Assembly (NCBI RefSeq): GCF_014651035.1
Contig: NZ_BMWC01000016.1
Span: 1-64,000 of the forward strand
Source: Streptomyces lomondensis
Lineage (GTDB): Bacteria; Actinomycetota; Actinomycetes; Streptomycetales; Streptomycetaceae
DNA length: 64,000 nt
Reading direction: 5' to 3'
The notes under the pieces were generated by a model, which saw only the letters and a list, made by a program, of their open reading frames with translations, was not told where the DNA came from and made no database searches. Positions 1-6,503 of this stretch are shown here, piece after piece. How positions within the stretch are numbered: the first letter of the stretch is position 1; every line of letters begins with the position of its first letter. The translations under genes were made by a program, and so were the position numbers.

Positions 1-142
1 CGGCTACCGAAGACTCAGCCCCCGCTACGAACGCAACCCCCGCAACTACCCGGCCTTTCTCAGCCTCGCCGCAGCCATGTGCTGCTACAAGCGACTCGCC
101 CGCCTCACCACATAGGACACGGTCTTATCGTGCGCGCCTGCC
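1..142 (+). mobile_element. Right end of an IS5-like insertion sequence, cut by the window edge
   Basis: The segment up to the shared base pattern near 141-142 matches, in reverse complement, the IS end at 9451-9600. Beyond that point the two sequences differ completely, which marks the IS boundary. Both copies carry the same terminal stretch (GGACACGGTCTTATCGTGCG just after the transposase stop). The copy is oriented so that its end faces the 143-9450 segment. Few differences are visible in the overlap (for example Phe-Leu-Ser against Phe-Pro-Gly in the transposase), so the two are separate but related insertions. Confidence 0.75.
2..115 (+). CDS. IS5-family transposase, C-terminal fragment (5' part outside window)
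   Basis: An open frame enters from the left edge and ends at the TAG at 113-115. The translated tail (GYRRLSPRYERNPRNYPAFL, then CCYKRLARLTT) is the typical C-terminus of IS5-family (IS427-like) DDE transposases of Streptomyces. The same tail occurs on the minus strand ending at 9478. Whether this copy is intact cannot be judged because most of it lies outside the window. Confidence 0.75.
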   Translation, partial: GYRRLSPRYERNPRNYPAFLSLAAAMCCYKRLARLTT

Positions 143-487: not shown

Positions 488-692
488 CTCCGTCATCGCC
501 CGCGCTCTGCACACCACCCGCCGGGCGCTGCGAGGGCCACGAGCGCACGGCGGTCCGGTACGCCCGGCGCCACCGACCCCAAGCTGTACCCGGCCACGAT
601 CTGGGCCAACTGGCTGTGTGGCGACCACAAGCCACTCCAGCAGCAATTCCGGGATGAAACATCGGGAGAAAACGACCTTTCAGAACTGGCCC
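488..692. other. Gap without a recognisable gene
   Basis: No frame here gives a protein I recognise. The stretch separates the integrase remnant from the promoter region of the two-component operon and may be further decayed mobile DNA. Confidence 0.4.
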
Positions 693-726
693 AAAGCACG
701 GCTCCGTCAACGCTGTTCCGTACTTT
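693..726. promoter_or_regulatory. Inverted repeat AAAGCACGG-N16-CCGTACTTT upstream of the two-component operon
   Basis: The half-sites are at 693-701 and 718-726, ending 42 bases before the ATG at 769. An almost identical element lies at 5414-5446 before the ABC transporter operon. The flanks are also similar (CCC before the left half, CCGG after the right half). Being shared by two promoters that face each other across the module suggests a binding site for the response regulator at 2578-3246. That assignment is inferred. Confidence 0.5.
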
Positions 727-768
727 CGGCCGGTACGCGATGCGCTTTGGCTTTCTAGCCTGGGCGGC

Positions 769-1314
769 ATGAATACAGGGGATCGGCCGACAAGGTCGGC
801 TGGCATGATGTTCAACATCGGGCTCGGCGTCGTGTTCACCCTGGGGATCGTCTTCACGACTTTCATGCTCATGGACAGCTGGGGCGGCGCCTCCTGGGTG
901 TTCGGCTCCGCCGTCTCGATCATCGTGGGGGGCCTCGCGCTGATGCGCGAGCGGCAGAAGATGCTGACCGCGGTCGGGGGCCTGGCCGTGACGGCCGTCG
1001 CCGTCGCGGTGTCCCTGATCGCCGGGGACGACCTGCCGCAGGAGCCCGCGCCCATCACGGCGCTGGCCCTGTCGGTGCTCGTCGGCTCCTCAATCAGGAC
1101 GCTGCCGAGGGGGCCGGCCGCCGGGATCGCTGCGGGTGGCGTCGTGGTGACCGGGGGCACCTGGTTCGACGGGGGGACCGGCGTGACGAGCCTGGCCACG
1201 ATGGGGATGATCGCCGCCCTCGTGATGGGGTCGGTGCTGCGCGGACTCGACCGCAACCGGCACGCCAACGCCCCCGCCCCGCAGGGCTCCCGGGCCGACC
1301 CGCCGCGTTCGTAG
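769..1314 (+). CDS. Membrane protein resembling a kinase sensor domain without the kinase
   Basis: A 181-residue protein with about four or five hydrophobic segments: MFNIGLGVVFTLGIVFTTFM near residue 15, then segments near 45-60, 65-85, 95-125 and 135-155. It aligns by eye along its length with the membrane part of the next gene: both have the TWGAAFWV/SWGGASWV pattern followed by a VVGGLAxMRxRxxxxTAVxGL stretch. It ends two bases before the GTG at 1316 and is surely co-transcribed with the kinase. It has no H-box or ATPase domain. A role as accessory sensor or modulator is inferred; no named family was recognised. Confidence 0.75.
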   Translation: MNTGDRPTRSAGMMFNIGLGVVFTLGIVFTTFMLMDSWGGASWVFGSAVSIIVGGLALMRERQKMLTAVGGLAVTAVAVAVSLIAGDDLPQEPAPITALALSVLVGSSIRTLPRGPAAGIAAGGVVVTGGTWFDGGTGVTSLATMGMIAALVMGSVLRGLDRNRHANAPAPQGSRADPPRS

Positions 1315-1315
1315 C

Positions 1316-2581
1316 GTGGCCGGAGAACTGGTGGACGCGGTGAGCTCCGCCCAGGCCGCTGCCACTACCGTGGAGTTGACCGCCGGCGCGCCCGCGGCCC
1401 CGCCGAGCGGCGCGGATCGCGGGCAGAGATTCGGTAATCTGATCAACGTGACCATTCCGGACCGATGGGCCAGGGGCGTCTCCACCGTCGGGCTTGGCGT
1501 CACGTTCCTCACGGCGATCGCCATCCAGGCCGTCGCAATCGCGCAGACCTGGGGAGCCGCGTTCTGGGTACCCGGGGCCGCCGCCGCCGTGGTGGTGTGC
1601 GGGCTCGCGATGATGCGTCATCGGGAGCGGACCTGGACGGCGGTTGCGGGCCTCGTCGTTGCCGCGCTGGCGGTCCTCATCCCGCTGCTGCCCGGGACCG
1701 AGCTTCCCGCCGGGCTCGGACCCTCCATGGCCCTGGGCCTGGGAGTGCTCATCGGTTCCGCGGTCAGGGTGCTGCCGACTGTGCGGGCCGGGGCCGTCGC
1801 GGGCGCCGGACTGCTGGTGATCGCTGCCCAGTCCGCCGCCCGGCCGGCGTCAGCGGTCGTGGCCATCGCCGCAGCGGCGTGGCTGGCCGCCCTCGGGGTC
1901 GGGCTGTCGCTGCGCATGCTCGACGGCCGGGCGAGGGCGACCGCCGAACGGGTGCGTCGGGCCGAACGGCTGGAGCTTGCCCGGGAACTGCACGACATCG
2001 TGGCCCATCACATCACGGGGATGCTGATCCAGGCGCAGGCCGCCCAGATCGTCGCGAGGCGGGCCCCGGAGAATGTGTCGAACTCGCTGACCGAGATCGA
2101 GACCGCCGGGTCCGAGGCCCTGGCGGCGATGCGCCGCGTCGTCGGGCTGCTGCGTGACACCGACGACGCGGCGCCTGCCTCACCCGGCCCGGAGGCTCTG
2201 AGCACGCTGGTCGAGCGCTTCAGCCGCCAGGGCCCGACGGTGCGACTGAGCATGCCCGACGACGACACGCAGTGGCCGCCTGAAGTGACCAGCACCGTGT
2301 ACCGCATCGTCCAGGAGGCGTTGACGAACGTCCTTCGGCACGCGCGGCACGCCCGCTCCATCGACGTCGTCGTCGGCCGCGACGCCGAGGCCGTCACCGT
2401 CGAGGTCGCCGACGACGCCCCGCCGAACTCCGTCCGGCCCCGTCACCGCGGCGGGTACGGTTTGATCGGCATGCGCGAACGCGTCGAGACGCTCGGCGGC
2501 TCCCTGTGTGCCGGTCCCCGGCCCGGCGCCGGCTGGTCCGTGCGGGCGACCCTGCCCGTCCCCGCCCGGAGGCCCGGATGA
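1316..2581 (+). CDS. Two-component sensor histidine kinase (NarL/DesK-type, HisKA_3)
   Basis: Hydrophobic helices cover about residues 55-205. They are followed by the dimerisation/phosphoacceptor motif LARELHDIVAHHITGM (His near residue 226) and a HATPase_c domain with N-box VQEALTNVLRHARHA and glycine loop GYGLIGMRERVETLGGSL. The start is uncertain. GTG 1316 gives the full open frame, but GTG 1448 gives an N-terminus that lines up better with the preceding paralogue; the 40 or so extra residues are Ala/Thr-rich and unlike a membrane domain. Its stop overlaps the regulator start by ATGA, so the pair is translationally coupled. The stimulus is unknown. Confidence 0.9.
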   Translation: MAGELVDAVSSAQAAATTVELTAGAPAAPPSGADRGQRFGNLINVTIPDRWARGVSTVGLGVTFLTAIAIQAVAIAQTWGAAFWVPGAAAAVVVCGLAMMRHRERTWTAVAGLVVAALAVLIPLLPGTELPAGLGPSMALGLGVLIGSAVRVLPTVRAGAVAGAGLLVIAAQSAARPASAVVAIAAAAWLAALGVGLSLRMLDGRARATAERVRRAERLELARELHDIVAHHITGMLIQAQAAQIVARRAPENVSNSLTEIETAGSEALAAMRRVVGLLRDTDDAAPASPGPEALSTLVERFSRQGPTVRLSMPDDDTQWPPEVTSTVYRIVQEALTNVLRHARHARSIDVVVGRDAEAVTVEVADDAPPNSVRPRHRGGYGLIGMRERVETLGGSLCAGPRPGAGWSVRATLPVPARRPG

Positions 2582-3246
2582 CCATCAAGGTTCTGCTCGC
2601 CGACGACCAGGCGATGATCCGCCGTGGCCTGCGGCTGATCCTGGAGGATCAGCCCGACATCGCCGTCATCGGGGAGGCGGCGGACGGCGCCGAGGCGATC
2701 GAGATGGCCAGGCGGCTGCGGCCGGACGTGTGCCTGGTGGACATCAGAATGCCCAAGCTCGACGGCATCGAGGTCACCCGCGCGCTGGCCGGCCCGGGCG
2801 CAACCGATCCGATACGGGTCATCGTTGTCACCACGTTCGATCTCGACGAGTACGTGTACGGGGCACTGCGCGGCGGCGCGGCCGGGTTCATCCTCAAGGA
2901 CGCCGGGCCCGCCCTGCTCATCGAGGCCGTCCGCGCCGCCTGCAACGGCGAGGCGCTGGTCTCGCCGTCGGTCACCCTACGGCTGCTGAAGCACCTGAAC
3001 GAGACCGGGGCTGTGCCCCGCGGTTGCGCCAGGCAGTCGCCACCGCTGTCCGGACGCGCGCTCGAGGTCGTGCAGGCCATCGCGCGTGGCCGCACCAACC
3101 AGGAGATCGCCGCCGAGCTGTTCATCTCCCTCAGCACAGTCAAGAGCCACCTGTCGGGGATTCAGACCAAGCTCGGGCTGCGCAACCGGACCGAGATCGC
3201 CGTCTGGGCCTGGGCGAACCGCATCGTCGAGAGCACCTCTGAGTAA
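2578..3246 (+). CDS. LuxR/NarL-family response regulator
   Basis: A 222-residue regulator with receiver domain at residues 1-120: acidic pair LLADDQ, phospho-acceptor Asp55 in CLVDIRMP, Thr in VVTTFD, Lys in FILKDA. A LuxR DNA-binding domain follows at about 157-215 (ALEVVQAIARGRTNQEIAAE, then LSTVKSHLSGIQTKLGLRNR). It is cognate to the upstream kinase by the 4-base overlap. The inverted repeat before the operon and before the ABC transporter operon is its most likely target, by inference. ATG 2578 was chosen over an upstream in-frame start because of the ATGA junction. Confidence 0.92.
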   Translation: MTIKVLLADDQAMIRRGLRLILEDQPDIAVIGEAADGAEAIEMARRLRPDVCLVDIRMPKLDGIEVTRALAGPGATDPIRVIVVTTFDLDEYVYGALRGGAAGFILKDAGPALLIEAVRAACNGEALVSPSVTLRLLKHLNETGAVPRGCARQSPPLSGRALEVVQAIARGRTNQEIAAELFISLSTVKSHLSGIQTKLGLRNRTEIAVWAWANRIVESTSE

Positions 3247-3371
3247 ACGGTTCACCTCCTCAGCACGACCGCCAGTTTCCGTACGGTCGGGTTGAGTCAG
3301 CGCGCCGGGGGTGCAGCGACGGCAGACCCGATACGGGCATCATCGAAGCCATCCTCATGGCGAGCGAAAAG

Positions 3372-3401
3372 GGCGCCGCCGGGAAAGCCCCCGGCGGCGC
3401 C
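3372..3401. terminator. Stem-loop between convergent operons
   Basis: A perfect 12-bp stem (GGCGCCGCCGGG at 3372-3383 pairing with 3390-3401) with a 6-base loop lies between the response regulator stop and the convergent ABC permease stop. It could terminate transcription from both sides; there is no clear U-tract, as is usual in Streptomyces. Confidence 0.6.
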
Positions 3402-3426
3402 TGGACGGCGTCGGTTGACACGAGGG

Positions 3427-4452
3427 TCAACTCACCCGGCGCCGGATCCGCCAGAGGCCGAACGCAGTGAGGATCCCGCTGAGTGTCAGGTAGATCGCGG
3501 TCTCCAGCCATTGGAACGACCAGTAGCGGCTGCTGGGGTGGTATTGGACGTCGACATGGAGGTTGTGCTGGGCGAGGCACACTGCCGTGTCGCCGAACGT
3601 GCCGCCCGCGCCGGTCTTGGGCGGGCTGTCGAGGCAGTCGTTGAACTTGCTCGCGCTGAGGGTCTTGCCGTCTGCGGTGCGCAGCGGGCTCGTCTCAGCA
3701 ATCCACGCGTCGGGTGCGTTCGGAATTTTCACCCCGCCGATGACGGAGCCACCGCCGATGCTGCCCAGATTCTGCGCCCCATTGATGGCTTCGACCGTCA
3801 TCGGCAGCGTGGCCTTGACCGGCGGCATGAGGCTGGGCCGCACCACGTTGGGGAAGAAGAACTGGAAGGCGAGGAAGACGACGAGCGTCACAGCCATCGC
3901 GGGCAGGGTCTTGCGCAGCAGGAGCCCGACGACTGTGCCGAATGTGAAGGCCAGTGCGGCGTAGCCGATCGGGGCGATGTTGCGGGCGCCGAACACGAAG
4001 GTCTCGAAGTGCTCCTTGACCACCTCGTCGAAGGGGCGGGCCGCCCAGGTGAGCAGGGCCGCAGCCGCGCCGGTCACGATCACAGCGGCCAAGCCGATGA
4101 GCAGGATCTTGCTGAGGAGCCAGCGCGGGCGGGTGATGCTCTGGTTCCACACCAGCCGGTGGGTGCCGTTCTCCAGTTCCCGGGCGACCAGGGGAGCGCC
4201 CCAGAAGGTGCCGATGAGGGCGGGGATCAGGGCGAGTCCGGCCGCCAGGAACAGCAGGGTGTTCTGGTAGGCGCCGCGGAACTGGCTCCTTGCCTCGGCG
4301 CAGTTGGCCGAGCCCTCGCACTTGGCTTGGTAGGCGTCGTAGGCGTCGCGGATGTCTGCACCGAGGGACACCATGTACACGGCAATAACGGCCAGTGCGC
4401 CGGCGCCGAACAGCGCCTGGATGCGGAACTGCCGCCAGCTCAGCCACATCAT
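3427..4452 (-). CDS. ABC-2 type transporter permease
   Basis: A 341-residue integral membrane protein. There is a first helix at about 12-32, a loop with two Cys (AKCEGSANCAEA), and helices near 63-88 (LLFLAAGLALIPALIGTFWG), 115-138, 155-180, 185-205 and 315-333. A large extracytoplasmic region lies between the last two. The motif LVARELENGTHRLVWNQSIT is typical of Streptomyces ABC-2 permeases. Its ATG overlaps the ATPase stop (ATGA), so the two form one transporter. The substrate is unknown; the linked two-component system suggests an envelope-stress or antimicrobial-export role, which is inference only. Confidence 0.85.
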   Translation of the reverse strand: MMWLSWRQFRIQALFGAGALAVIAVYMVSLGADIRDAYDAYQAKCEGSANCAEARSQFRGAYQNTLLFLAAGLALIPALIGTFWGAPLVARELENGTHRLVWNQSITRPRWLLSKILLIGLAAVIVTGAAAALLTWAARPFDEVVKEHFETFVFGARNIAPIGYAALAFTFGTVVGLLLRKTLPAMAVTLVVFLAFQFFFPNVVRPSLMPPVKATLPMTVEAINGAQNLGSIGGGSVIGGVKIPNAPDAWIAETSPLRTADGKTLSASKFNDCLDSPPKTGAGGTFGDTAVCLAQHNLHVDVQYHPSSRYWSFQWLETAIYLTLSGILTAFGLWRIRRRVS

Positions 4453-5372
4453 CGCTGGGCCCCCCGGACTGCGGCCTCGGTCCGGGCGACGGATACGGCG
4501 GCTGCCCGGGTCATGTAACCGAGGACGAGTTCCTCAAGCGTGACGGGCTCGGCCTGACAATGCAGGGCCTCGGGCTCGCTGTCGGTGCGGACGACCGCGC
4601 TGCTGTGCGCGCCGCTGTGCTCCACCGAGATCACCTCGATGCCGGCGGGCAGCCGGTCGAACTCGCCGCGAGGCGCGACCAGTCGGGCGTGCCTGGCCAG
4701 CAGATCCCGGGTATCGCCGGCGACCTGCACCCGCGAGTCGCACAGCACGATGAGGTAGTCGCAGACCTGCTCGATGTCGCCGAGCAGGTGCGAGGACAGC
4801 ACGGCGCTGGCACCGAGCTCGAGGACGAACTCCGTCAGGTTCTGCAGGAACCCCTTGCGGGCCAGCGGGTCCAGCGCCGCCGCCGGCTCGTCGAAGATCA
4901 GCAGCTCGGGCCTCTTGGCCGCCGCGATGGTCAGCGCCAGCTGCGCTCGCTGGCCACCCGACAGCTGCCCGGCCTTCTGCGCGGGGTTCAGCCCCACCTG
5001 GCCGATACGCCGCTCGGCCAGGGGCGGGTCCCACGCCGGGTTCATCTTCGCGCCGAGCTTCAAGTGCTCGGCCACGGTGAACGCGCCGTACACCGGCGTG
5101 TTCTGCGCGACGAACCCCACCCGGGCCAGATGCGAGGCGTTCGCCGCGGGACGTGACCCCAGCACGGTCAGCGAGCCGGACGTCGGCTCGATCAACCCGC
5201 AGGCCAGGTGCAGCAGGGTCGACTTGCCCGCCCCGTTCGGGCCGACAAGGCCGATGACACGGCCGGAGGGGATGGTGAGGTTCACGTCGCTCAGGGCCGG
5301 CTTGCCGCGGCGACCGTATTTCTTCGTCAAACCCTCTGCTTGAAATGCCGGAGGGGAGTCTGTAGGTGGCAT
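4449..5372 (-). CDS. ABC transporter ATP-binding protein
   Basis: Contains Walker A GPNGAGKST, Q-loop VGFVAQNTPVYG, ABC signature LSGGQRAQLALT, Walker B ELLIFDEPAAALDP and H-loop SSHLL. A C-terminal extension of about 80 residues may contact the permease. ATG 5372 is preferred (first residues MPPTDSPPAFQAEGLTKKYG); an in-frame GTG at 5420 would add 16 poorly conserved residues. It is first gene of a two-gene operon with the permease. The inverted repeat at 5414-5446 lies just upstream and is shared with the two-component operon. Confidence 0.9.
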   Translation of the reverse strand: MPPTDSPPAFQAEGLTKKYGRRGKPALSDVNLTIPSGRVIGLVGPNGAGKSTLLHLACGLIEPTSGSLTVLGSRPAANASHLARVGFVAQNTPVYGAFTVAEHLKLGAKMNPAWDPPLAERRIGQVGLNPAQKAGQLSGGQRAQLALTIAAAKRPELLIFDEPAAALDPLARKGFLQNLTEFVLELGASAVLSSHLLGDIEQVCDYLIVLCDSRVQVAGDTRDLLARHARLVAPRGEFDRLPAGIEVISVEHSGAHSSAVVRTDSEPEALHCQAEPVTLEELVLGYMTRAAAVSVARTEAAVRGAQR

Positions 5373-5413
5373 GCCCTCATCCTGGAATTCCCCCTTCTTC
5401 CCAGCATCCGCCC

Positions 5414-5446
5414 AAAGCACGGTTCCCTAGTCGGCGACCGTACTTT
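5414..5446. promoter_or_regulatory. Inverted repeat AAAGCACGG-N15-CCGTACTTT upstream of the ABC operon
   Basis: Half-sites at 5414-5422 and 5438-5446, about 42 bases upstream of the ATPase ATG at 5372. It matches the element at 693-726 in both arms and in part of the flanks. A common regulator is inferred. Confidence 0.5.
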
Positions 5447-5567
5447 TGACCGGTTCCGAGCCCAGGTCCCGCTGCGGTGATCACCGATCCGGCAATTCCC
5501 CGGCGTGCGCGGTCGCTGGATCAAGGTGGCGGGTGGCAGAGACCTGCTGGCTGGAGCCGTGGACGGG

Positions 5568-6503
5568 TCAGACGGTGACGACGACTTTGCCCCGTGAGTA
5601 CCGGCCCGACGCGAACTCGGCGAGGGCCTTGGGGGCGTCGTCCAGGGGGTAGGTGGCCGCGACCTCGACGGACAAGGTGCCCGCGGCGACGCGCTCGGCG
5701 AGATGCTGCAGTTTCCCTTCGGGCGCCGACATCCGCACGTACACGACGGTGATGTCGCGCTCGAAGGTCTCCGGGCCCATCAGTGTGGACAGCAGCCGGC
5801 CGCCGTCCTTCACCGCGTCCGCCGTGTCCAGGAGGGCGGGACCGCGATTGATGAGATCCAGTACGACGTCCAGCCGTCCGCCGACCAGCCGCTGGGCCTC
5901 CTTCACCGGATCGGTCGAGGTGTAGTCGATGACGTCGTGCGCACCGAGGGAGCGCACGTAATCGGCGTCGGCGGGCGTAGCCGTGGCCAGTACCCGCAGG
6001 CCCGCCCGTGCCGCCAGCTGGACGGTGAAGGAACCGACGCCGCCGGTGGCCCCGATGATCAGGATCGTCCGGCCGGCCCCGGCCTCAGCCGCCGCCATGA
6101 TGCACTCCGCGGTCAGGGACGTGGCGGGCAGCGCGGCACCGCGCACCGCGTCCAAGCCCGTCGGCCGCTTGGCCACGTTCGGGCCCACTGCGACCGTCGT
6201 GTACTCGGCGATGGTGCCCGGGTGGAAGTGGGTGTAGGCCACCACGGCATCGCCGATCTCGTAGCCGGTGACGCCCTCGCCGACGGCCTTCACGACTCCG
6301 GCGGCGTCCATGCCCACGACGAAGGGGTGCTCGACCGGCATCATGGCGCGCATCGCGCCGGTCACCAGGGCGCCGTCCAGAGGGTTGAGGCCCGCGGCTT
6401 CCACTTGCACGAGCAGCTCACCGGGGCCCGGACGGGGAGCGGGCACATCGGTGACGACGAGCTGGTCCAGCGGGCCGTAGGACGGGGCGACAAGTGCTTT
6501 CAC
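5568..6503 (-). CDS. NADPH-dependent quinone oxidoreductase-like protein (MDR superfamily, zinc-free)
   Basis: A 311-residue protein with an N-terminal GroES-like domain (PGPGELLVQVEAAGLNPLDG; GMDAAGVVKAVGEGVTGYEIGD) and a Rossmann domain with ILIIGATGGVGSFTVQLAARAG at about residues 143-165. The C-terminus FASGRYSRGKVVVTV is typical of the family. The Cys/His zinc ligands of alcohol dehydrogenases are absent, so reduction of quinones or activated alkenes is expected. It is transcribed divergently from the LuxR-type gene at 6642, which may regulate it. Confidence 0.88.
   Translation of the reverse strand: MKALVAPSYGPLDQLVVTDVPAPRPGPGELLVQVEAAGLNPLDGALVTGAMRAMMPVEHPFVVGMDAAGVVKAVGEGVTGYEIGDAVVAYTHFHPGTIAEYTTVAVGPNVAKRPTGLDAVRGAALPATSLTAECIMAAAEAGAGRTILIIGATGGVGSFTVQLAARAGLRVLATATPADADYVRSLGAHDVIDYTSTDPVKEAQRLVGGRLDVVLDLINRGPALLDTADAVKDGGRLLSTLMGPETFERDITVVYVRMSAPEGKLQHLAERVAAGTLSVEVAATYPLDDAPKALAEFASGRYSRGKVVVTV

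What the first reader, a model, noticed from the sequence alone, without database searches (positions are those of the whole stretch)
693..5446. Shared inverted repeat AAAGCACGG/CCGTACTTT at both ends of a sensor-ABC module
The element occurs 42 bases from the first gene of the two-component operon (693-726) and about 42 bases from the ABC ATPase start (5414-5446), with spacers of 16 and 15 bases. The operons converge, so the sites bracket the module. This predicts that the response regulator controls both itself and the transporter.
Basis: partly seen in the sequence, partly recalled or inferred. Interest (0 to 1): 0.58.

Follow-up and report, generated by a model that had tools for sequence, protein, structure and literature searches.

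The report
Operator pair of a sensor-transporter module
Two matching DNA elements flank a bacterial sensor-and-exporter gene module; they are very probably the switch through which the sensor's regulator controls both itself and the exporter, and in related bacteria the same switch sits in front of quite different membrane and secreted proteins.

Summary
The two elements are the only matches to their pattern in the 8.78 Mb genome. The conserved element is longer than described: 17-nt arms with a 15-17 nt spacer (685-734, 5406-5454). Homologous modules in Streptomyces, Amycolatopsis, Micromonospora, Plantactinospora and Actinomadura carry it. In a sample of 394 genomes of the class, all 19 with a site also have a close homologue of the regulator (25 have one). 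One supported clade of 30 regulators has full (19) or partial (10) sites at its loci; of 26 other regulators none has a full site, 5 a single arm. Geometry is alike at both promoters: the near arm ends about 21-22 bp before a -10-like hexamer and 33-36 bp before the start codon, suggesting leaderless mRNAs and class II activation. Of 34 sites in two genome samples, outside the model's training set, 26 precede DUF418 membrane proteins, 4 a PAF-acetylhydrolase-like hydrolase, 3 ABC ATPases. Codons 2-8 also resemble each other across these unrelated genes, as if operator, promoter and leader travelled as one cassette. Against: four to six genomes have sites without a regulator of the clade. Binding, sign and signal are untested.

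The parts
685..734 (+). operator 1 (core 693-726): 17-nt arms, 16-nt spacer, in front of the sensor/regulator operon
   Evidence: model R1 E 3.7e-10 (a training site)
756..761 (+). -10-like hexamer TAGCCT, 21 nt after the operator edge, 7 nt before the start codon
769..1314 (+). small membrane protein (SMP), 39% identical over 163 residues to the N-terminal half of the kinase; no Pfam match
1316..2581 (+). histidine kinase (HisKA_3 + HATPase_c)
2578..3246 (+). response regulator (Response_reg + GerE/LuxR), NarL/FixJ type; proposed binder of both operators
3371..3402 (.). strong hairpin between the convergent operons, likely bidirectional terminator (inferred)
3427..4452 (-). ABC-2 family permease
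4449..5372 (-). ABC transporter ATPase; start codon taken as ATG at 5372
5349..5369 (-). leader codons 2-8 of the ATPase, similar to the first codons of unrelated genes behind the same operator elsewhere
5379..5384 (-). -10-like hexamer CAGGAT, 21 nt after the operator edge, 6 nt before the start codon
5406..5454 (-). operator 2 (core 5414-5446): 17-nt arms, 15-nt spacer, in front of the ABC operon
   Evidence: model R1 E 5.4e-12 (a training site)

Best explanation
The two elements are operators of the module's own NarL-type response regulator (2578-3246). When the kinase (perhaps with the small kinase-like membrane protein) senses its signal, the phosphorylated regulator binds both arms, probably one dimer per 17-bp arm, about three helical turns apart. 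The arm nearest each gene lies at about -51 to -35 from the start codon (centre near -43), in place of a -35 element in front of a -10 hexamer, so the regulator activates transcription of leaderless mRNAs for its own operon and for the ABC exporter (class II activation). The ancestral form was probably one operator shared by two divergent operons; in this genome it exists as two copies. Shown by sequence: sites, geometry, conservation, co-occurrence with the regulator clade. Inferred: binding, dimer per arm, activation rather than repression, start sites, ancestry. Unknown: the signal and the substrate.
For: Only 2 sites in the genome. The same pair with diverged spacers around the 93-98% identical module of G124, the only other of 246 genus genomes with a strict match. 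All 8 public loci found through the permease have a related element before the ABC gene. PWM scan of 61 loci: full sites in 15 (L044 repeats L005), partial in 3, none in 43; 42 of these 43 have no regulator of this clade at the locus (13 sites of this set trained the PWM). Sequence model R1 (19 sites) then found sites it was not built on: before SMP-HK-RR operons on other contigs in Micromonospora fulviviridis (L146) and Amycolatopsis thailandensis (L147), and a half site before an orphan regulator in S. albipurpureus (L149). Class sample: 19 of 394 genomes have a site at E<=1e-3 and all 19 are among the 25 with the regulator at E<=1e-88, Fisher 1.6e-27; without the 4 genomes that supplied training sites, 15 within 21 of 390. 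Family f17 sample, no training genomes: 20 of 71, all within the 37 with the regulator at E<=1e-80, p 7e-8. Regulator tree: one clade (99/96) with 19 full, 10 partial and 1 no site; 26 other regulators, no full site. Operator edge to -10: 21.4 +/- 0.6 nt on the target side (29 of 31 promoters) and 21.5 +/- 0.7 on the kinase side (12 of 13) (hexamers were sought only 17-24 nt from the edge).
Against: No binding or expression data. Four class-sample genomes (G514, G629, G684, G692) have sites but only regulators outside the clade (66-68% identical); G791 and G820 in the f17 sample also show only 64-68% regulators. L050 has a clade regulator but no site. In the f17 sample 3 of 17 genomes with a regulator at least 70% identical have no site at the threshold (G407, G773, G821); G407 has a weak one. 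Five of the 26 regulators outside the clade (L240, L241, L243, L244, L247) have single-arm matches (10-14 bits) nearby, as strong as some I labelled partial inside the clade (L219, L220, 12.4-12.5 bits), so the arm is not exclusive to the clade. Kinase-side promoters of several relatives keep only the near arm. The internal dyad expected for a dimer per arm (best centre 9.5) was not significant (544 of 2000 controls reach it).
Confidence: 0.8

Rival explanations
1. The regulator binds these operators but represses: it blocks RNA polymerase, and the signal relieves it.
For: The near arm abuts the place of a -35 element, which could also serve repression.
Against: The near arm ends 21-22 bp before the -10-like hexamer in most cases, the classical class II activator position, and I see no TTGACA-like -35 by eye (no scan was run); NarL-type regulators in such modules usually activate (recalled); LnrJK is needed for lnrLMN induction (PMC7472640, passages).
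Confidence: 0.15
2. A different transcription factor encoded elsewhere binds the element, and the module's regulator is only a linked passenger.
For: Four to six genomes have sites without a regulator of this clade.
Against: Sites follow the regulator to unlinked loci; full nesting in two samples; other groups of the same regulator family have related sequences near their own loci: a 17-N16-17 repeat in L222 (1 of 6 stretches given) and single arms in five more distant loci.
Confidence: 0.08
3. The elements are promoters for an alternative sigma factor rather than operators.
For: They lie just upstream of start codons at fixed distance.
Against: Most promoters have their own -10-like hexamer outside the element; the element is symmetric and can serve both directions.
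Confidence: 0.03
4. A recent local duplication or chance makes the two copies look alike without function.
For: Only two copies in this genome.
Against: Spacers differ while arms agree, in this genome and in G124; conserved across genera.
Confidence: 0.01

Closest known systems
LnrJK-LnrLMN of Bacillus subtilis (linearmycin/polyene sensing two-component system with its ABC exporter; PMC7472640, passages read)
   Same: Two-component system whose main target is an ABC exporter operon.
   Different: lnrLMN has three genes; here one ATPase and one permease. No operator or protein sequence was compared; the signal here is unknown. That LnrK is NarL-type is recalled.
NarL/FixJ-family response regulators in general
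   Same: Receiver plus GerE/LuxR HTH; HisKA_3 kinase partner.
   Different: Operator with two 17-bp arms about 33 bp centre to centre, facing apparently leaderless promoters on both sides.
YrkPQ with DUF418 protein YrkO, B. subtilis (mentioned in PMC10128005, passage read)
   Same: A two-component system controlling a DUF418 membrane protein and other envelope genes.
   Different: No homology was tested; only the target class is shared, and with relatives of the window's system, not with the window itself.
MacS, MctRS, MadRS and LiaS models (NCBIfam)
   Same: Kinase (all four) and regulator (MadR, MctR) match these models in part.
   Different: All far below the curated cut-offs.

Membership tests
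NarL/FixJ-type two-component system | HisKA_3 kinase with HATPase domain | tested here: met
   PF07730 61.6 bits, PF02518 39.8 bits, above cut-offs
NarL/FixJ-type two-component system | Receiver domain plus C-terminal GerE HTH, conserved Asp at the phospho-acceptor place | tested here: met
   PF00072 and PF00196; D55 invariant in 18 aligned regulators; that D55 is the acceptor is inferred
NarL/FixJ-type two-component system | Phosphorylation-dependent DNA binding | not testable with these tools
   needs protein
Autoregulated sensor-ABC exporter module | Shared operator at regulator operon and transporter operon | tested here: met
   sequence only
Autoregulated sensor-ABC exporter module | Export or resistance phenotype | not testable with these tools
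   none
LnrJK-LnrLMN | Three-gene transporter operon as in lnrLMN | tested here: not met
   one ATPase and one permease
LnrJK-LnrLMN | Induction by polyenes | not testable with these tools
   none
LiaS / MacS / MctRS / MadRS (NCBIfam equivalogs) | Score above curated cut-off | tested here: not met
   kinase 45-75 bits against 300-700; regulator 130-135 (MctR, MadR) against 300
Class II activator-dependent leaderless promoter | -10-like hexamer 5-8 nt before the start codon, activator arm over the -35 place | tested here: met
   sequence geometry only
Class II activator-dependent leaderless promoter | No Shine-Dalgarno sequence | tested here: inconclusive
   clear on the kinase side by eye; AGGA inside CAGGAT could serve on the ABC side
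Class II activator-dependent leaderless promoter | Transcription start at the start codon | not testable with these tools
   needs 5'-end mapping

The most novel reading that the evidence does not exclude
The operator, its leaderless promoter and the first eight or so codons form a portable cassette that has been joined in frame to at least three unrelated genes (ABC ATPase, DUF418 membrane protein, PAF-acetylhydrolase-like hydrolase) in different actinomycete lineages, so that one sensor system keeps its switch but exchanges its effector.
Probability: 0.45. Interest if true: 0.62.

Novelty: new variant of a known kind. Interest (0 to 1): 0.5.

Why it matters
It turns an uncharacterised sensor-exporter module into one with a defined operator, promoter geometry and regulon, testable in one gel shift and one reporter. 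The same switch in front of three unrelated genes gives a natural comparison for finding the common signal, probably membrane or lipid stress (inference), and a case for asking how regulons swap effectors while keeping their promoter and first codons.

Tried and rejected
Internal dyad of the arm: best centre 9.5 but not significant (544 of 2000). Seven arms of a sister regulator group pair 4-8 of 9 positions about the same centre, against a mean of 3.9 (1-6) in the 38 arms of this clade (which corrects one mistyped letter); suggestive only.

Alternative sigma-factor promoter: considered and rejected because most genes have their own -10-like hexamer outside the element. Shine-Dalgarno reading of CAGGAT: the distance to the operator is tighter (sd 0.56) than to the start codon (sd 0.89), but the hexamer was sought in a limited window, and some genes have a second in-frame start 9-10 nt earlier; not excluded for the ABC side. 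The kinase-side hexamer TAGCCT is no Shine-Dalgarno.

Structure of the small membrane protein: AlphaFold model of low confidence (mean pLDDT 53, six helices); no fold search made. R1 hit in G098 at 365840 (E 1e-3) has none of the module's genes nearby; taken as noise. Of six regulator paralogue loci five had no hit at E<=1 and one, L166, a weak partial hit (E 0.2). In one search my script chose a wrong frame for L210 and L214 (and for L300); the gene families were settled by tblastn.

Papers: searches for the motif letters (68 papers hold them, the 20 listed had no bearing by title), for NarL-ABC-Streptomyces (25), DUF418 with response regulators (50) or with regulon and Streptomyces (73), LnrK (53), NarL modules (55), NarL and leaderless (72), divergent promoters (74): no paper in the parts of these listings that I saw describes this operator. 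Only passages of PMC10128005 and PMC7472640 were read; of all others only search listings.
Full report
WHAT IS THERE. The pattern AAAGYACGG-N13..18-CCGTRCTTT occurs at 2 places in the 8,782,931-base genome and the reversed control at none. The genes between them are, on the plus strand, a small membrane protein (SMP, 769-1314), a HisKA_3 kinase (1316-2581) and a NarL-type regulator (2578-3246), and on the minus strand an ABC ATPase (4449-5372) and an ABC-2 permease (3427-4452). A strong hairpin lies between the convergent operons. The genus is Streptomyces by inference: G187, called same genus, has a contig of the same length (363,159 bases) as the S. albipurpureus record of L005.

CONSERVATION. 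Of 246 genus genomes searched with the strict pattern, one other than the window's own (G124) has a match, and it has the same pair around a module 93-98% identical in protein; arms identical, spacers changed. A permease search of public genomes gave 8 loci; all 8 carry a related element before the ABC gene. Aligning these shows a longer element: 17-nt arms, spacer 15-17. Gene order varies: convergent in the window and G124; tandem in L006, L007, L010, L012, L085; divergent in L005, L011, L086, L087, where one element lies between the two operons. In 4 of 5 two-site loci (window, G124, L006, L085) the arm nearest the kinase operon is of the ACCGG type and the arm nearest the ABC operon of the ATC type, as in the divergent form; in L012 the kinase-side arm reads ATCAG. 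This suggests an ancestral shared operator that was copied when the operons were moved apart (inference).

CONTROL BY ABSENCE. In a PWM scan of 61 loci (60 around ABC homologues plus the window), full sites were found in 15 (L044 repeats L005; L047 scored 34 and is called partial in the tree below), partial in 3 (L045, L046, L105), none in 43. Of the 15, L005/L044, L008 and L009 have no regulator at the locus but one elsewhere in the genome. Of the 43, 42 have no regulator of this clade at the locus (some of their genomes have one elsewhere) and one, L050, has one. The PWM was trained on 13 of the sites, so this is partly in-sample.

TESTS ON NEW SEQUENCE. A sequence-only model of 19 sites (R1) was run on 18 genomes that hold a module or a relative. 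In the window's genome the next hit after the two sites has E 0.07. L008 and L009 had seemed exceptions because no regulator was near; the model found further sites on other contigs in both genomes, and there SMP, kinase and regulator follow directly (L146 in Micromonospora fulviviridis, E 9.5e-14, also divergent to another ABC ATPase; L147 in Amycolatopsis thailandensis, E 2e-9). In S. albipurpureus the regulator lies apart from its kinase behind a kinase remnant and keeps a half site (L149, E 0.008).

CO-OCCURRENCE. In a class sample of 394 genomes 19 have a site (E<=1e-3) and 25 a regulator homologue (E<=1e-88); all 19 are among the 25 (taken as the same draw; Fisher 1.6e-27). Both searches score only part of the first-look candidates, so weak matches can be missed. 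Four of the 19 (G000, G487, G561, G573) supplied training sites; without them 15 lie within 21 of 390. In family f17, with no training genome, 20 of 71 have a site and all are among the 37 with a regulator at E<=1e-80 (p 7e-8); 5 of these 20 were already in the class sample. Of the 17 f17 genomes with a regulator at least 70% identical, 14 have a site; G407, G773 and G821 do not. A tree of 56 regulators puts 30 in one clade (99/96): 19 with a full site at the locus, 10 with a partial one, 1 (L050) without. The 26 outside have no full site; five of them (L240, L241, L243, L244, L247), all in the most distant group, have a single-arm match of 10-14 bits, near a quinone-oxidoreductase-like gene in at least four. 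'Partial' labels were given by me and include matches as weak as 12.4 bits (L219, L220), kept because they lie 21-23 nt before a -10-like hexamer of the kinase gene. So the two-arm site marks the clade; the single arm is wider, which fits a regulator family that recognises this arm.

PROMOTER GEOMETRY. From the operator edge to a hexamer of the -10 kind is 21.4 +/- 0.56 nt on the target side (29 of 31 promoters; none recognised in L010 and L206) and 21.5 +/- 0.65 on the kinase side (12 of 13; not L147). The hexamer pattern was made after seeing the alignments and sought 17-24 nt from the edge, so the spread is partly set by the search. The target-side hexamer is mostly CAGGAT, the kinase-side one TAGCCT or TAGCGT in 10 of 12, followed after 5-8 nt by ATG or GTG. 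Held-out promoters agree: hexamer at 21-22 nt in 11 of 12. This is what a leaderless promoter with an activator over the -35 place looks like (established knowledge of class II activation; the start sites are inferred, and some genes have a second in-frame start 9-10 nt earlier). Several regulators outside the ABC setting keep only the near arm at their own promoter, so the near arm seems to matter most for autoregulation.

OTHER TARGETS. The 34 sites of the two samples outside the training set were examined for the gene on the target side: 26 DUF418 membrane proteins, 4 PAF-acetylhydrolase-like hydrolases, 3 ABC ATPases, 1 none (L304). Pfam was run on three of the DUF418 proteins and two hydrolases; the rest were assigned by tblastn to L201 and L213. 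In 16 of 34 the kinase operon is divergent on the other side, as with the ABC gene. So in these lineages a DUF418 gene often takes the place of the ABC exporter. In the first set the leader codons 2-8 of ABC and DUF418/hydrolase genes are 48.7% identical across classes against 33.6% in 26 control windows (maximum 36.7%); with held-out genes, ABC against DUF418 49.9% (controls 33.1%, maximum 38.2%, 30 windows), ABC against hydrolase 47.4% (30.2%, maximum 46.7%), hydrolase against DUF418 40.5% (31.0%, maximum 38.3%); ABC against SMP, both behind the same operator, shows no excess (33.1% against 31.5%), nor does DUF418 against SMP (31.2% against 32.3%). L087 was left out of the ABC set and L300 of the 11 held-out DUF418 genes; related sequences are not independent and no p-value was computed. 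The common leader and the extra N-terminal stretch ahead of the first hydrophobic segment in several DUF418 and hydrolase proteins (by eye) fit an in-frame joining of a promoter-plus-leader cassette; selection on the first codons of leaderless mRNAs is the alternative.

UNEXPLAINED. G514, G629, G684 and G692 have sites before DUF418 or hydrolase genes but only regulators of the sister group; G791 and G820 look alike by identity. A related repeat is seen at the sister group's own promoter in L222, with the same 17-N16-17 form (1 of 6 stretches), so that group may have taken over; not tested.

FUNCTION. ABC exporter, DUF418 membrane protein and a lipase-like hydrolase are plausibly all envelope-directed, so a membrane or lipid-directed stress is the likeliest signal (inference). 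For comparison only: LnrJK controls an exporter in answer to polyenes (PMC7472640, passages) and YrkPQ controls a DUF418 protein (PMC10128005, passage).

VERDICT. A two-component system that controls itself and its exporter is a known kind; the operator that serves both directions and the exchange of effectors behind a constant operator-promoter-leader make it a variant worth testing.

Noticed in passing
window 769-1314 and 1457-1945: The small membrane protein is a stand-alone relative of the kinase's own N-terminal membrane half (39% over 163 residues), a possible partner or decoy sensor; no separate copy was detected beside the kinase in L007, L010 and L011.
   Followed up: partly
L005 (HK without RR) and L149:4914-5787: In S. 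albipurpureus one locus has the kinase without a regulator and another the regulator behind a kinase remnant: a split system that kept operator sequence at both places.
   Followed up: partly
L222:5888-5937: A sister regulator group, next to another ABC gene, has a related 17-N16-17 repeat (ATCGGCCG-type), a possible co-evolved operator variant.
   Followed up: partly
L240:2881-2903, L241:2912-2929, L243:671-685, L247:1454-1476: A more distant kinase-regulator group has a single CGGCCGAAAGTACG-type arm near a quinone-oxidoreductase-like gene; a gene of that family also sits beside the ABC operon in the window (5568-6503), there without such an arm in R1 searches.
   Followed up: partly
L009:4780-5911: A site with the usual -10 and leader codons stands before a permease-like gene alone, with no ATPase between.
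   Followed up: partly
L043 (G124:C1:8885303-8890121 of 8936092): The module lies about 46-51 kb from the end of that genome's single contig, fitting accessory, horizontally moved DNA (inference); only 3 of 392 genus genomes, the window's own included, have a permease over 80% identical.
   Followed up: no
window 2-115: The window starts at a contig end with a short open frame that looks like the tail of a transposase (recalled likeness; no Pfam match).
   Followed up: no
L050: A clade regulator without any recognisable site at its locus.
   Followed up: no
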